Position numbers and translations under genes: made by a program. DNA of 40,404 nt from Parcubacteria group bacterium LiPW_15 (GTDB lineage: Bacteria > Patescibacteriota > Minisyncoccia > UBA6257 > 2-01-FULL-56-20): contig VMER01000003.1 of assembly GCA_007375645.1 (NCBI GenBank), positions 145,553 to 185,956 on the forward strand, given 5' to 3'. Shown one piece after another: positions 1-14,539 of the stretch (positions within the stretch are counted from its first letter, which is position 1; every line of letters begins with the position of its first letter). A model generated the notes under the pieces. The model ran no database searches. It saw only the letters and a list, made by a program, of their open reading frames with translations, and was not told the origin of the DNA.

Positions 1-506
1 AGCCAAGCGCCTACCGGCTTGCCGATCAACTTTCCCGCGCCGACCACCGCTACCACGCTGTCGGCCAGATCCATCGGAAACTTTTTTAATATTTCTTCCA
101 CGGTTGCGACCGCCGGAGGCAAAACTTTGTTCCGCCCCGCATAAAACGCGCCCAGGGCCTGCTCGCCCAAAACATCCGGGTCTTTATCCTGCGGAATCGC
201 GTCCAAAACATATTGGAAGTCTACGCCGGAAGGCAGAGGCAATTGGACCAGCACCCCGCCGCAGGACTCGTTGTCCGCGGTCTTACGAACCTCTTCGCGC
301 AACTCTTCCCCGGAAAGCCTTTCTTCTAACCGATAAATCCGGAAATCCACCCCGAGCGTCGCCGCAACCTTAGCTTTTTGTTTTACAAAGCTCTCCGAGG
401 CGGTATTCTCCCCGACCAAAAAAGCGGCGAAGAATCTTTCGATCTTCGACTTTTCGCTTAATTCGCGAATCAGTTCTTCCGCTATCTTTCTTCCGTCGAG
501 GACCAT
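1..506 (-). CDS. folD: Bifunctional methylenetetrahydrofolate dehydrogenase/cyclohydrolase FolD (C-terminus runs off window)
   Basis: Minus-strand translation from ATG at 506: MVLDGRKIAEELIRELSEKSK...GGVLVQLPLPSGVDSQYVLDAIPQDKDPDV...VVGAGKLIGKPVGAWL; matches FolD motifs (VQLPLP, PxKDVDG-like, GRS-like). Start abuts the glyA TAA stop. Confidence 0.93.
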   Translation of the reverse strand, partial: MVLDGRKIAEELIRELSEKSKIERFFAAFLVGENTASESFVKQKAKVAATLGVDFRIYRLEERLSGEELREEVRKTADNESCGGVLVQLPLPSGVDFQYVLDAIPQDKDPDVLGEQALGAFYAGRNKVLPPAVATVEEILKKFPMDLADSVVAVVGAGKLIGKPVGAW

Positions 507-9592: not shown

Positions 9593-9904
9593 TTACTTGG
9601 CATAGGCGGCTTTTATAACTTCAAATTCGTTGCTTAGCGCCGTTTCGATCTTCTCGAGCAAACCCGGAGTCTTCGCGGCGAGCTCTTCCACCGCTGCTTC
9701 TAATTTATCGGAGTTTGTCGATTCGGACAGGCCCTCCGCGTCTTCCAGCGAAAGGTTAAGAAGAAGCGTCTCGATTATTATTTTGTCGAAATGCTCCAGC
9801 AGCTTGTCCGCCACTTCTTCCGCTTCGCTTTCCGGAAGGTTTATTCCCAAAGACGCCAAGAGTTCCCTTTTTTCTTTTTTCAAAATCAGTTCGGATTTAT
9901 CCAT
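9593..9904 (-). CDS. Small acidic hypothetical protein
   Basis: 103 aa; start overlaps the end of the 9897-13655 gene by 8 nt; acidic helical composition. Confidence 0.75.
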   Translation of the reverse strand: MDKSELILKKEKRELLASLGINLPESEAEEVADKLLEHFDKIIIETLLLNLSLEDAEGLSESTNSDKLEAAVEELAAKTPGLLEKIETALSNEFEVIKAAYAK

Positions 9905-12900
9905 TTTTGTTGGAATTTTTCTTTATGAACTCGACAATTTTCTTTTCGGAAGCGCCTTTCTTGATAAGTAAGTGTTCCCTACGTAGGTTTGAAAAATGAT
10001 TGTAGACGATAATCGAATTCGGCAAATCTCCCGGCGCAAATCCACCTTCTGTAATGGCTTTTTTGACAGTAGCCGCTATTCTTTTTATTTCCTCTGCTCC
10101 AATTATCATGTCGTCGGGAAAAGATATCTGCGGCAAAGATGGATTTTCTGCGTTGAAAGATTCTTGCTCCTTTATGGCCTCCTGTCGTTTTATCATCCTC
10201 TCGCTTATTTGTTCGATGCGCCCCTTGCCAGCGAGCCAACCGGCTACGTCCCCTAAATATTTTTTATCTACCTCAATCTCTCCGCTCGCAAGGATCCTGG
10301 GTTTCTGCCGGGTCAACCCGCGCATGGATATTTTGAGTCCACGCACGTCCTTAACAACTTCTTTTATCTCCGCGACACTCTTCTCAAAAGAGACTGCGTC
10401 TAGGGCGGTAATTCCCATGTCGTCCGCGACAGAAAGGGATATTCCGGACTCGCTGCGAATCTTTGTAACCAATGCTTGCACCTCATCACTCGTTATAACT
10501 TTTTCACTTTTCAGTCGTTTCACCTCCCTTCTTTCTGCCAGGTCATCCAAAAGCATGCCCCAAAAGCGTCCGCCATAGATTCCACCCCCGATCGAAAGCA
10601 CGGTTCCGCCGACAGCCAGGGCAATCTTCTCTGCGACACTCCCCGTCTTTTCACCTGCAACTTCTCGGCCAAGAGCCTTAGAACCCTCTTTGGCAACTAC
10701 TTCTCCTGCTTCAACAACCATCTCTTTTGGTGCCTCTGCCGCCGCTTCAGCCGTAGCCGAAACCGCTCCTTCATGCGCTTCGCGGAGCGCCCCTGCGGCC
10801 GCTTCTTTTACCTCTTCCACAACTTCATCGCTCGTCAGATGGCCGATAGCTCCCTCGTAGAAATTATTTTCGCCGGATGCCAGGGTCGCGCCTTCGTTTT
10901 TCATAAACTCGATGGTTTCCGAGGAAAGAGAGCTACGGACAATGCCGGACAAGTTTTCTATCTGTTTATCGGAAAGCATATCTGCCTTTTCGAGCGCCTC
11001 ATATATTCTCTCCGCGGGAATAGCAATGTGTTCTCCGGGGCGAAGATTTGCCACACCCACATCCGCCAGATTCTTCTGCAGCCAATCTTCCGCGTAAACC
11101 ATTTTTTCCGGCGGGAAGTCATTTACGATTCCCAGTTTTGAAAAATTCGCGACCAGGTCATGGATTCCCTTCCTGGCCACATGAGTCAAACCATCGCCTT
11201 GCTGGACCTCAACCGCAAAATCCCGGCGCATAATTTCTCCGAGCATTTCGCCGACATTCTTTTTCGCCATCGCGTTCGCGGCCGCAAAACTTTTCTCCAC
11301 GGCTCCGTTCGCTTCCGGGCCCAAGACCGCAACCGCCGCTACGCCTTTCTCCGCAGTCGCACCCGCTTTTTCTTCGGCAACTATGGCCGCTCCTTTTTTC
11401 ACCGCGCTCTCCACCGCATCGCTTTCCGCGCCAATGTGGTCCGAAATAAATCCGGTAATAGCGCCTCCGATCGCACCGCCAAAAGCGCCGATGACCGCCC
11501 CGCGCAGAGCCGCACCGCCCAGCTTCTTCCACTCCGCCGGTCCGCGTTCAAGCGTTATGCCTTTTATCAATTTTTTGATATCTTTCTTTTCTGTTTTACT
11601 GATGTCCTCCGCGTTTTTCTCTGCGATCTTCAATATTGCGACAATCTTATCCTTACCCTCCAATCCCGCGGTTTCTTTTTTGGCATCCAAAAGAGTCTTG
11701 GCCGCGCGCAGTTCTTCCGCGACCACAGCAAGTTCCTCTTCATCTCCGGAGATTTTCTTTTTTTCGTACAGATCGTTTATTTTCGCGTAGACCAAAGCCT
11801 TCTCCTCGTCGGTCTCCGCCGCATCAAACTGGTCGATCACGCTCCCCGCCCGAAACTTCCTCTTTTCTTCCCAAAGTTCTTTTCCGAATCCGACAGCCGC
11901 TCCGGCCACGGCTCCCGCCGCTATCCCGACCGCCAAATTGCTTCCCAGGGCGTAACGAAAAGATTTTTTGATAAGCATTCTCGCCGCTCCGCCGGAAACT
12001 ACGCCACCCGCAAGCGACATCCAACCGCCTTTTTCGGTTATATATTTTTTTATTTTGGCGGTAAACCTGCTCGTGGATTCCTCGGTTTGAAGTTCTTTTG
12101 CGAGATTCTCTTTTTCTTCCTCGCTCGCGGCGGGAATCGCCGCTTCCACCGCGGCCGCTACCGCCACCGGGTCAGCCAAAACCTTCTCGGCCTCTTCGGC
12201 CGCAACTTCCGCTATTTCTGTTGGGGCGAGTTCTTTTCCTTCGCTTGGCTCCGCTTCCGATTCCGTAACTTCGCCGTGCGGCGCTGCTTTTATCCCGTGA
12301 AGATTCGGCCACGCCTCAACCATCTTGTTCGAATGATCGATAAAATCCTTGAACTTTTTTGTGCCAAATTTTTTTCTTTTTTCCTCCTCGGACAAACTAG
12401 GCGAAAGTAATTCTTTTTGCGCCTCCTCGATGTCTCGCAATAGAGTTCTGACCGCATTTTCAAATCCCGGCCATTTATTCTGCCCTTTTAGTTCTTCTAA
12501 TCTCGTTCGCAGGTTTTCCGCCTGCTCGGTTATTTTGCCTAAATCCGCACCCCTCCATTCGGCCTCCTCGGCTTTTTTCTTTTCAATTCTTGCGAAGGTA
12601 TCTCCGATTACGCCGTATTTATTTCGATAGGCATCGGCCTTCTCCGGATTTTCCAAAACAAATTTTTCCCAGGCGGCGCGAGAAACCGGGCCAAAGGTCG
12701 CGCTCCACTCGTCAGGTTCGGGGCTTATATTCCCGACTGCACGCTGAGTGGCTTTGGTTATTTCATCCTTGAGCGCAGCAATTGCCGGATCTTCCGCCGG
12801 ATTTTCATATAGTTTGACCTCGGTTGGCTTTGCGCCAGTCTCCGCAGCCTTAGCTTTGTCGTCAGCAATTTCCGGCACCGCGCTCTTTCCTTCCGCTCTA

Positions 12901-13655
12901 TCAAGCGCCTCTGTGATTGCTCCGAATTTGCCACGATAAGCCGCCGCCTTCTCCGGATTTTCCGAAACAAATTTATCCCAGGCAGTGCGCGATGCGGGGC
13001 CGATGGCGGCGTTCCACTCCTCGGCTGTCGGGTTTATTTTCCCGATCGTTCGTTTGACGGAGTTGGTTATTTCGAGCTTCAGCGCGATAACCGCCGGATC
13101 TTCCGACGGATTTTCATATATCTTGCCTGCCTCTTCTTTTTTTTCTTTTTTCTTGACCTCTATGACCGGTTTGAAAATAATCGGCTTCGGGGCCTCCTCT
13201 GCGACCGGCTCCGTCGCCGACTCTCGTTCAAGCTCGATCGCGTACAAATCGGGATGCTTCCCGAGAGAAAGTTCTTTGATGAGGGACAAGATTCTGTCCC
13301 TGTTTTTATAAATTTCATCTTTTTCGTCTCCGTTGTTCAAGCACTCGAAAAGAACCGGAGACTCAATACGAAAAACAGTTGCCGCTTGTTCTGCGGGCGG
13401 CAGATCGTTCTTCCACTCCAAAATGTCATGATAGTTATCGCTCCTAACTTCGTATTGTTCCTCCTTGCCGGTCTCCGCGTCTTTTTCCGCCTCCATCCCC
13501 ACATATTCGATCTTGAACTCATCGGGGTCCAAGTGCAGGGCCTCGCGAAGATAATTATTCAGCGGGTCGCTATACCGCTTCTCGCTTTCGGGGCTGGTTT
13601 GCTCTGTTTTCGCCGCGGATGGCTGAACATCCGGTCCTTGGTTTTCGGTGGTCAT
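9897..13655 (-). CDS. Giant repeat-containing protein with glycine-zipper membrane-like segments
   Basis: 1252 aa ORF; two ~80-aa repeats (KIYENPSEDPAVIALKLEITNSVKRTIG... and KLYENPAEDPAIAALKDEITKATQRAVG...) offset by 103 aa; Gly/Ala-rich segments GGWMSLAGGVVSGGAARML, GIAAGAVAGAAVGFG, GGAALRGAVIGAFGGAIGGAITGFI, GGTVLSIGGGIYGGRFWGML. Confidence 0.9.
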   Translation of the reverse strand: MTTENQGPDVQPSAAKTEQTSPESEKRYSDPLNNYLREALHLDPDEFKIEYVGMEAEKDAETGKEEQYEVRSDNYHDILEWKNDLPPAEQAATVFRIESPVLFECLNNGDEKDEIYKNRDRILSLIKELSLGKHPDLYAIELERESATEPVAEEAPKPIIFKPVIEVKKKEKKEEAGKIYENPSEDPAVIALKLEITNSVKRTIGKINPTAEEWNAAIGPASRTAWDKFVSENPEKAAAYRGKFGAITEALDRAEGKSAVPEIADDKAKAAETGAKPTEVKLYENPAEDPAIAALKDEITKATQRAVGNISPEPDEWSATFGPVSRAAWEKFVLENPEKADAYRNKYGVIGDTFARIEKKKAEEAEWRGADLGKITEQAENLRTRLEELKGQNKWPGFENAVRTLLRDIEEAQKELLSPSLSEEEKRKKFGTKKFKDFIDHSNKMVEAWPNLHGIKAAPHGEVTESEAEPSEGKELAPTEIAEVAAEEAEKVLADPVAVAAAVEAAIPAASEEEKENLAKELQTEESTSRFTAKIKKYITEKGGWMSLAGGVVSGGAARMLIKKSFRYALGSNLAVGIAAGAVAGAAVGFGKELWEEKRKFRAGSVIDQFDAAETDEEKALVYAKINDLYEKKKISGDEEELAVVAEELRAAKTLLDAKKETAGLEGKDKIVAILKIAEKNAEDISKTEKKDIKKLIKGITLERGPAEWKKLGGAALRGAVIGAFGGAIGGAITGFISDHIGAESDAVESAVKKGAAIVAEEKAGATAEKGVAAVAVLGPEANGAVEKSFAAANAMAKKNVGEMLGEIMRRDFAVEVQQGDGLTHVARKGIHDLVANFSKLGIVNDFPPEKMVYAEDWLQKNLADVGVANLRPGEHIAIPAERIYEALEKADMLSDKQIENLSGIVRSSLSSETIEFMKNEGATLASGENNFYEGAIGHLTSDEVVEEVKEAAAGALREAHEGAVSATAEAAAEAPKEMVVEAGEVVAKEGSKALGREVAGEKTGSVAEKIALAVGGTVLSIGGGIYGGRFWGMLLDDLAERREVKRLKSEKVITSDEVQALVTKIRSESGISLSVADDMGITALDAVSFEKSVAEIKEVVKDVRGLKISMRGLTRQKPRILASGEIEVDKKYLGDVAGWLAGKGRIEQISERMIKRQEAIKEQESFNAENPSLPQISFPDDMIIGAEEIKRIAATVKKAITEGGFAPGDLPNSIIVYNHFSNLRREHLLIKKGASEKKIVEFIKKNSNKNG
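12576..13124 (-). repeat. Two in-frame protein-coding repeats within the 1252-aa gene
   Basis: Unit A ~12885-13124 and unit B ~12576-12815, offset 309 bp; shared DNA such as ccgccggatcttccg(a/c)cggattttcatata. Confidence 0.85.
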
Positions 13656-13748: not shown

Positions 13749-13777
13749 TTGACAGAATCCCACAAGCGCACTACCCT
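13749..13777 (+). promoter_or_regulatory. Promoter of candidate ncRNA
   Basis: TTGACA (13749-13754), 17-nt spacer, TACCCT (13772-13777). Confidence 0.65.
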
Positions 13778-13783
13778 AACGAT

Positions 13784-13971
13784 GGTCGAAGGCGTAGGTG
13801 TCTCCAATTAGGCACCGACCTGGAGGCTGCGGACACGCAGTGGAGATCGCTTTCACGGGAAGTTCGGTCCTTCCGGAAACTTCCGCGGCCGGTACACGGC
13901 CGAGCCCGTACATGCGCGCGGGTGAGCACAAGGCGACTACTGAGCCACAGGGCAAGGTAGTCGCCATTTTT
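13784..13971 (+). ncRNA. Candidate structured non-coding RNA (class unknown)
   Basis: Between promoter and intrinsic terminator; contains stems GGTGTCT/AGGCACC, CTGCG/CGCAG, GGAAGT/ACTTCC enclosing CGG/CCG, CGGCCG/CGGCCG, CCCGT/GCGGG and terminator stem GGCGACTAC/GTAGTCGCC followed by ATTTTT. No convincing conserved ORF. Confidence 0.6.
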
Positions 13972-14014: not shown

Positions 14015-14539
14015 ATGATTATTAGAAACGCTACCCAGGTTGGAAATCCGATAATTCGGAAACGCTCAAAACCGATAAGAATGGTTAAGTCCGCCGAAAC
14101 AAGGAAGTTGGTAAAAAATCTTACCGATTCCATGCGCTATCACGATCTTGTCGGCATGGCGGCACCGCAAATCGGCGTTAATCTAAGGGTATTTGTAACC
14201 GAGGTTAGAAAAACCAAAACAAGGAATCCGAAGTTGGTAGACCCACTGAGAGTCTTTATCAATCCAAGAATAGTTCGCTTTTCAAACAAAAAGGCTTTGA
14301 TATGGGAGGGGTGCGGAAGCGTGGCTCGTTCTAATCTGTTCAGTATTGTGAGGAGGCCGGCAGAAGTGACCGTTGTAGCCCTTGATCAAAAGGGAAACAA
14401 ATTCAGGTTAAGCGCGAAAGGATTATTGGCCCGCATCATTCAGCACGAGACAGACCACCTAGATGGAAGGGTGTTCCTCGATAGGATTTCTGATACCAAA
14501 ACCCTCATGAGCAGAGAGGAATACGTTAAGAAAGCTTAG
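14015..14539 (+). CDS. def: Peptide deformylase
   Basis: 174 aa; GMAAPQIGVNLRVFV, WEGCGSV and QHETDHLDGRVFLDR motifs. Confidence 0.95.
   Translation: MIIRNATQVGNPIIRKRSKPIRMVKSAETRKLVKNLTDSMRYHDLVGMAAPQIGVNLRVFVTEVRKTKTRNPKLVDPLRVFINPRIVRFSNKKALIWEGCGSVARSNLFSIVRRPAEVTVVALDQKGNKFRLSAKGLLARIIQHETDHLDGRVFLDRISDTKTLMSREEYVKKA

What the first reader, a model, noticed from the sequence alone, without database searches (positions are those of the whole stretch)
13749..13971. Candidate novel ~188-nt structured RNA with its own promoter and terminator
TTGACA-17-TACCCT, then at least five consecutive short hairpins (GGTGTCT ccaatt AGGCACC; CTGCG gaca CGCAG; GGAAGT..CGG..CCG..ACTTCC; CGGCCG gtaca CGGCCG; CCCGT..GCGGG) and a 9-bp terminator stem GGCGACTAC/GTAGTCGCC with T-tract. 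It does not show the signatures I know for tmRNA, RNase P RNA or SRP RNA. Length is in the 6S RNA range but the multi-hairpin layout does not look like 6S. It could alternatively be a cis-regulatory leader, since def starts at 14015.
Basis: partly seen in the sequence, partly recalled or inferred. Interest (0 to 1): 0.75.

Follow-up and report, generated by a model that had tools for sequence, protein, structure and literature searches.

The report
Orphan hairpin-rich small RNA gene
Between two divergently transcribed genes of a tiny-genome bacterium (a candidate Patescibacterium) lies what is probably a small stand-alone RNA gene of about 190 bases, but no relative of it could be found in any other genome searched, so it is a plausible lineage-specific small RNA of unproven function, not a new conserved RNA class.

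Summary
The hairpins and the terminator are real. Four hairpins of at least 6 pairs lie in the 148-nt body (shuffle mean 0.7; 0/500 reach 4), and a 10-bp terminator stem is followed by ATTTTT. The -35 is perfect but the -10 (TACCCT) matches only 3/6. Such sites are still over ten-fold commoner between genes than in genes of this genome. The body's folding energy alone is unremarkable (z -1.7); most of the signal is the terminator. No Rfam family matches. The element is probably its own transcription unit and not a def leader: it ends in a terminator inside a divergent gap, def has its own TG-A-TATACT promoter 8 nt before its ATG (leaderless starts are common in this genome), and six def orthologues lack it. 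A one-sequence covariance model finds only itself in 245 genomes of the order and in 382 and 387 drawn from phylum and class. Control models from the same genome find RNase P in 7/7 relatives and another unannotated RNA in 115 of 244 others. Best reading: a lineage-restricted, autonomously transcribed small RNA; no target found, no covariation testable. In passing: the control RNA (G000:C5:36272-36442) is a strongly covarying, 6S-shaped RNA without an Rfam match.

The parts
13749..13754 (+). -35 hexamer TTGACA (6/6)
   Evidence: TTGACA-16..18-TANNNT sites are over ten-fold denser between genes than inside genes of this genome
13772..13777 (+). putative -10 TACCCT (3/6, weak)
   Evidence: an alternative extended -10 (TGACAGAAT, hexamer from 13753) scores higher on the genome's own matrix (7.4 v 3.3), so the 5' end is uncertain
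13784..13971 (+). putative ~188-nt RNA (5' end inferred)
   Evidence: fold z -4.3 for the whole, -1.7 without terminator; no Rfam match
13788..13854 (+). domain I: stem P1 GAAGGCG/CGCUUUC enclosing two hairpins (13797-13816, about 50%, with a competing pairing; 13826-13841, about 0.84-1.0)
   Evidence: pair probabilities
13858..13884 (+). hairpin GGAAGUUCGG..CCGGAAACUUCC with UCCUU loop
   Evidence: pair probabilities mostly 0.9 or more
13886..13902 (+). hairpin CGGCCG-GUACA-CGGCCG
   Evidence: pair probability 0.96-1.0
13904..13923 (+). hairpin GCCCGU/GCGGGU
   Evidence: pair probability 0.9-1.0
13932..13971 (+). intrinsic terminator: GGCGACUACU/GGUAGUCGCC, inner GCC-ACAG-GGC, then ATTTTT
   Evidence: one of 8 divergent gaps (of 66) with such a terminator in the genome
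14001..14006 (+). -10 TATACT with TG-A before it: def's own, probably leaderless, promoter (outside the RNA)
   Evidence: ends 8 nt before the ATG; in this genome -10 boxes cluster 6-9 nt before ATG (84 sites at 6-9 nt, 288 genes examined)
14015..14539 (+). neighbour: def, peptide deformylase (second paralogue), not part of the RNA unit
   Evidence: PF01327 E 1.2e-42; orthologues without upstream RNA

Best explanation
A lineage-restricted, autonomously transcribed small RNA gene: transcription starts downstream of a strong -35/weak -10 promoter and ends at the intrinsic terminator, giving a GC-rich RNA of about 190 nt made of a 5' three-way-junction domain and three further hairpins. It most likely acts in trans, as orphan bacterial small RNAs usually do, by exposing hairpin loops (CCAAUU, UCCUU, ACAUGCGC) for base pairing or by binding a protein. 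Shown: sequence, hairpin excess, terminator, separate def promoter motif, absence from relatives. Inferred: transcription, the 5' end and any function.
For: Terminator facing + inside a gap between divergent genes, where no annotated gene could need it. Perfect -35 with TANNNT at 17 nt; the weak 3/6 class occurs at 3.4 per 100 kb-strand between genes (about 1.9 after removing double-counted registers) against 0.15 in genes. Hairpin excess 0/500 at >=6 pairs; + strand folds better relative to shuffles than - strand (z -4.3 v -1.8; body -1.7 v +0.4). Non-coding: the ORFs across it score -0.31, -0.04 and 0.03 against 0.154 +/- 0.094 for real genes and have no Pfam match. Separate def promoter motif; def orthologues lack it. 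GC 61.7% against 47.7% for intergenic windows (top 2%).
Against: No transcript data. Weak -10. Body energy alone barely significant (z -1.7). No homologue anywhere, so no evidence of selection. No base-pairing target stands out from shuffled controls.
Confidence: 0.55

Rival explanations
1. Non-functional GC-rich intergenic sequence (for example a decayed gene or acquired fragment) in which a chance promoter-like site, chance hairpins and one real or relic terminator happen to line up.
For: Absent from all relatives; absent at the two relatives' copies of the neighbouring 1252-aa gene; weak -10; body z only -1.7; other GC-rich terminator-bounded stretches exist in the genome, at least one a small coding gene.
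Against: Hairpin excess 0/500, promoter-site enrichment between genes and a terminator facing the right way in the same 359-nt gap.
Confidence: 0.22
2. A 5' leader/attenuator of def: the promoter at 13749 drives def and the terminator 44 nt before the ATG is conditional.
For: Same strand, terminator directly upstream of def.
Against: def has its own TG-A-TATACT box at leaderless distance; six orthologues (52-60% identity) have no such leader; with the 3' terminator arm removed the 5' arm finds only a partial alternative pairing, no clear antiterminator; terminator pairing probability 1.0.
Confidence: 0.1
3. A diverged member of a housekeeping RNA family (SRP RNA or 6S RNA) that the Rfam models miss in this clade.
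For: SRP RNA and 6S were not detected by Rfam models in this genome or relatives.
Against: A housekeeping RNA should be found in relatives with a one-sequence model, as RNase P is (7/7); the SRP domain IV signature patterns do not occur in it; a much better 6S-shaped RNA exists at C5:36272-36442.
Confidence: 0.06
4. A small protein-coding gene.
For: Open frames of 71, 75 and 78 codons cross the region; other GC-rich small genes with Shine-Dalgarno sites exist in this genome.
Against: Codon scores at non-coding level, no codon-position GC signal (0.63/0.59/0.61 against 0.69/0.35/0.87 in a likely real small gene), no + strand start with a Shine-Dalgarno site, no Pfam match.
Confidence: 0.05

Closest known systems
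Orphan intergenic bacterial small RNAs (general class)
   Same: Intergenic, own promoter-like site, several hairpins, intrinsic terminator, length 50-400 nt, narrow phylogenetic range
   Different: No transcript, target or chaperone evidence here; the genus has only one held genome
6S RNA (RF00013)
   Same: Length about 190 nt
   Different: No model match; branched row of hairpins instead of a rod with a central bubble
Bacterial SRP RNA (RF00169, RF01854)
   Same: Size between the small and large SRP RNA; family otherwise undetected in this genome
   Different: No model match, no domain IV signature
Attenuator-type leaders (for example T-box, riboswitch leaders)
   Same: Structured RNA ending in a terminator upstream of a gene on the same strand
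   Different: Own downstream promoter motif for def, no clear antiterminator, no Rfam match, not conserved with def

Membership tests
autonomous bacterial small RNA gene | promoter upstream in an intergenic region | tested here: inconclusive
   perfect -35, weak -10; site class over ten-fold enriched between genes, but low score on the genome's own matrix
autonomous bacterial small RNA gene | Rho-independent terminator | tested here: met
   10-bp stem plus ATTTTT, pairing probability 1.0
autonomous bacterial small RNA gene | not protein-coding | tested here: met
autonomous bacterial small RNA gene | discrete transcript | not testable with these tools
   no expression data
novel conserved structured RNA family | homologues with covarying pairs | tested here: not met
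   no homologue; controls positive
6S RNA | covariance model match | tested here: not met
6S RNA | rod with central bubble | tested here: not met
   predicted fold is a row of hairpins
SRP RNA | domain IV hairpin motif | tested here: not met
   pattern scan of the whole genome gave no match in the element; no model match
tmRNA / RNase P RNA | model match; and whether the genome already has one | tested here: not met
   tmRNA at C1:59831-60154, RNase P at C5:71338-71701; no match in the element
def leader | conserved upstream of def orthologues | tested here: not met

The most novel reading that the evidence does not exclude
A functional small RNA family, so far known from one Patescibacteria-like species only, with a 5' three-way-junction domain and three GC-rich hairpins, acting as a trans regulator in a bacterium with many leaderless mRNAs, where classical Shine-Dalgarno-blocking small RNAs would have few targets.
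Probability: 0.3. Interest if true: 0.45.

Novelty: new member of a known kind. Interest (0 to 1): 0.27.

Why it matters
If transcribed, it would be a concrete small RNA candidate in a lineage for which my library searches surfaced no dedicated small RNA study, and in a genome where leaderless starts are common, so its way of acting could not be assumed from Shine-Dalgarno-blocking models. Being a singleton, it carries little evolutionary information. Its pursuit exposed a much stronger, conserved RNA elsewhere in the genome.

Tried and rejected
Rfam at gathering and at loose E-values: only chance hits. BLASTN to 60 relatives, plasmids and phages: no relatives, only short chance matches. Two genome-contig scans with the flanking proteins: nothing confirmed. 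Two viral contigs pattern scans failed on the server side, so that collection was not searched. The weak model hit G041:C4 (E 0.64) lies in what reads (by eye, no search run) like coding sequence of a protease and was rejected. An SRP-like string at C5:270941 did not fold as SRP domain IV. No CRISPR-like array of exact 18-mers was found, so a tracrRNA reading is unsupported. No paralogous copies of the region in the genome. Target prediction by duplex energy gave a best value inside the range of shuffled controls.

Full report
What is there. The element lies in a 359-nt gap between a 1252-aa gene on the minus strand (9897-13655) and def on the plus strand (14015-14539).

Is it more than chance? 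Dinucleotide-preserving shuffles of the 148-nt body give on average 0.7 hairpins of at least 6 pairs; the element has four, matched by none of 500 shuffles. Minimum free energy is less impressive: z = -4.3 for all 188 nt but -1.7 without the terminator; the reverse strand gives -1.8 and +0.4. Genome-wide it is 46th of 26,361 windows by raw energy and 438th after correction for composition. RNase P RNA of the same genome has z = -2.0, so a modest z does not exclude a functional RNA. The predicted fold has a 5' domain closed by GAAGGCG/CGCUUUC, in which hairpin 1 competes with another pairing, then three stable hairpins and the terminator.

Promoter. The standard scan rejects the site, and a matrix trained on 83 promoters of this genome scores it 3.3, below their 5th percentile of 7.1; an overlapping extended -10 (TGACAGAAT) scores 7.4. 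But sites of the form TTGACA-16..18-TANNNT are strongly concentrated between genes. In the weakest class (3/6 -10) I count 7 in 104 kb of intergenic DNA against 2 in 688 kb of genes; three of the 7 are second registers of better sites, which leaves about 1.9 against 0.15 per 100 kb and strand. A perfect -35 with TA---T in a gap is therefore more likely real than not. The exact 5' end is uncertain.

Own unit or def leader? The genome shows a striking peak of -10 boxes ending 6 nt before the ATG (47 sites among 288 genes with room upstream), and only 31 of the 288 carry a Shine-Dalgarno-like site: leaderless initiation is probably common. def has TG-A-TATACT ending 8 nt before its ATG. Six orthologues of this def paralogue (52-60% identity) have no such region upstream. 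Removing the 3' arm of the terminator gives only a partial alternative pairing of the 5' arm and no clear antiterminator. I conclude that the element is separate from def. A terminator facing a gap between divergent genes has to end something that starts in that gap.

Coding? The ORFs of 71, 78 and 75 codons across the region score -0.31, -0.04 and 0.03 on the genome's codon model (real 75-codon pieces 0.154 +/- 0.094; out-of-frame 95th percentile 0.08), have flat GC by codon position and no Pfam match.

Relatives. A covariance model of the single sequence finds only the element itself below E = 0.1 in all 245 held genomes of the order (two chance hits at E 0.6-0.7), in 382 genomes drawn from the phylum and in 387 from the class; these sets overlap. 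Full-sensitivity search of the def and 1252-aa gene neighbourhoods of relatives also fails. Controls show that the method works: a 188-nt one-sequence model of this genome's RNase P finds all seven relatives' RNase P at 23-89 bits (these loci had been picked by the Rfam model, so they are the detectable ones), and a 171-nt one-sequence model of another unannotated RNA of this genome finds 115 of the 244 other genomes of the order. The element is thus confined to this species or genus, or evolves much faster than those RNAs. In relatives that hold the 1252-aa gene the neighbouring genes on that side differ.

Known families. No Rfam match at any useful level. tmRNA and RNase P are elsewhere in the genome. 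6S and SRP models do not match the element, and neither is found elsewhere in the genome by Rfam models.

Mechanism. Committed reading: an autonomous, lineage-restricted small RNA acting in trans through exposed loops or as a protein ligand. Transcription is inferred from promoter and terminator; the mode of action is inference by analogy with bacterial small RNAs. Duplex-energy target search showed nothing beyond shuffled controls. The main rival is GC-rich intergenic debris.

Verdict. Real anatomy, probable small RNA gene, no demonstrable conservation: moderate to low interest. The same analysis turned up a far stronger RNA at G000:C5:36272-36442: rod-like, in 116 of 245 genomes (own included), 48 of 52 pairs with changes on both sides (0/500 shuffles; the alignment was fitted to the model, and RNAalifold run on that same alignment gives nearly the same structure with 42 of 46 pairs covarying), without a match in Rfam 15 in the 20 loci scanned. 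One of its 31 rows is the antisense strand of the own copy and should be dropped in any follow-up.

Noticed in passing
G000:C5:36272-36442 (+) (outside the window; L089:1501-1671): Unannotated ~170-nt RNA with a strong promoter score and a terminator: long closing stem, unpaired 5' strand CGGAUCAAAYAAUU, terminal stem GGGAGGGC..GCCCACCC, small 3'-side hairpin CCUGG..CCGG: a 6S-like layout. A one-sequence model finds it in 116 of 245 genomes of the order (own included), mostly one copy each; 48 of 52 pairs change on both sides (0/500 shuffles); no Rfam 15 match in 20 loci. Candidate 6S RNA of this clade; worth a study of its own.
   Followed up: partly
G000 whole genome: -10 boxes pile up exactly 6 nt before the ATG (47 sites among 288 genes examined; 23 with TGN), with Shine-Dalgarno-like sites in only 31 of 288: leaderless initiation seems common in this genome.
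   Followed up: partly
G000 and relatives: No SRP RNA detected by RF00169 (13 genomes) or RF01854 (21 genomes) although the control genomes ring; SRP RNA is lost or highly diverged here.
   Followed up: partly
G000:C5:87838-87955 (+): LOOT RNA (RF03000, 90.9 bits), an Rfam family listed as an sRNA gene.
   Followed up: no
G000:C5:148424 (+) and about C5:323080 (-): Small GC-rich ORFs (89 and 34 codons) with Shine-Dalgarno sites and own terminators, GC3 0.87 and 0.74 in a 48.6% GC genome: an odd class of small genes.
   Followed up: no
G000:C4:31281-31800 (-): Cluster of five unusual tRNA predictions (one Pyl/CTA-like, one with a four-base anticodon) on a 40-kb contig, perhaps a mobile element or phage array.
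   Followed up: no
window 14015-14539: This def is a second peptide deformylase paralogue with close orthologues (52% identity or more) in only 6 other genomes of the 38 of the family searched; a distant def copy also lies in this genome (C5:146360-146809).
   Followed up: no
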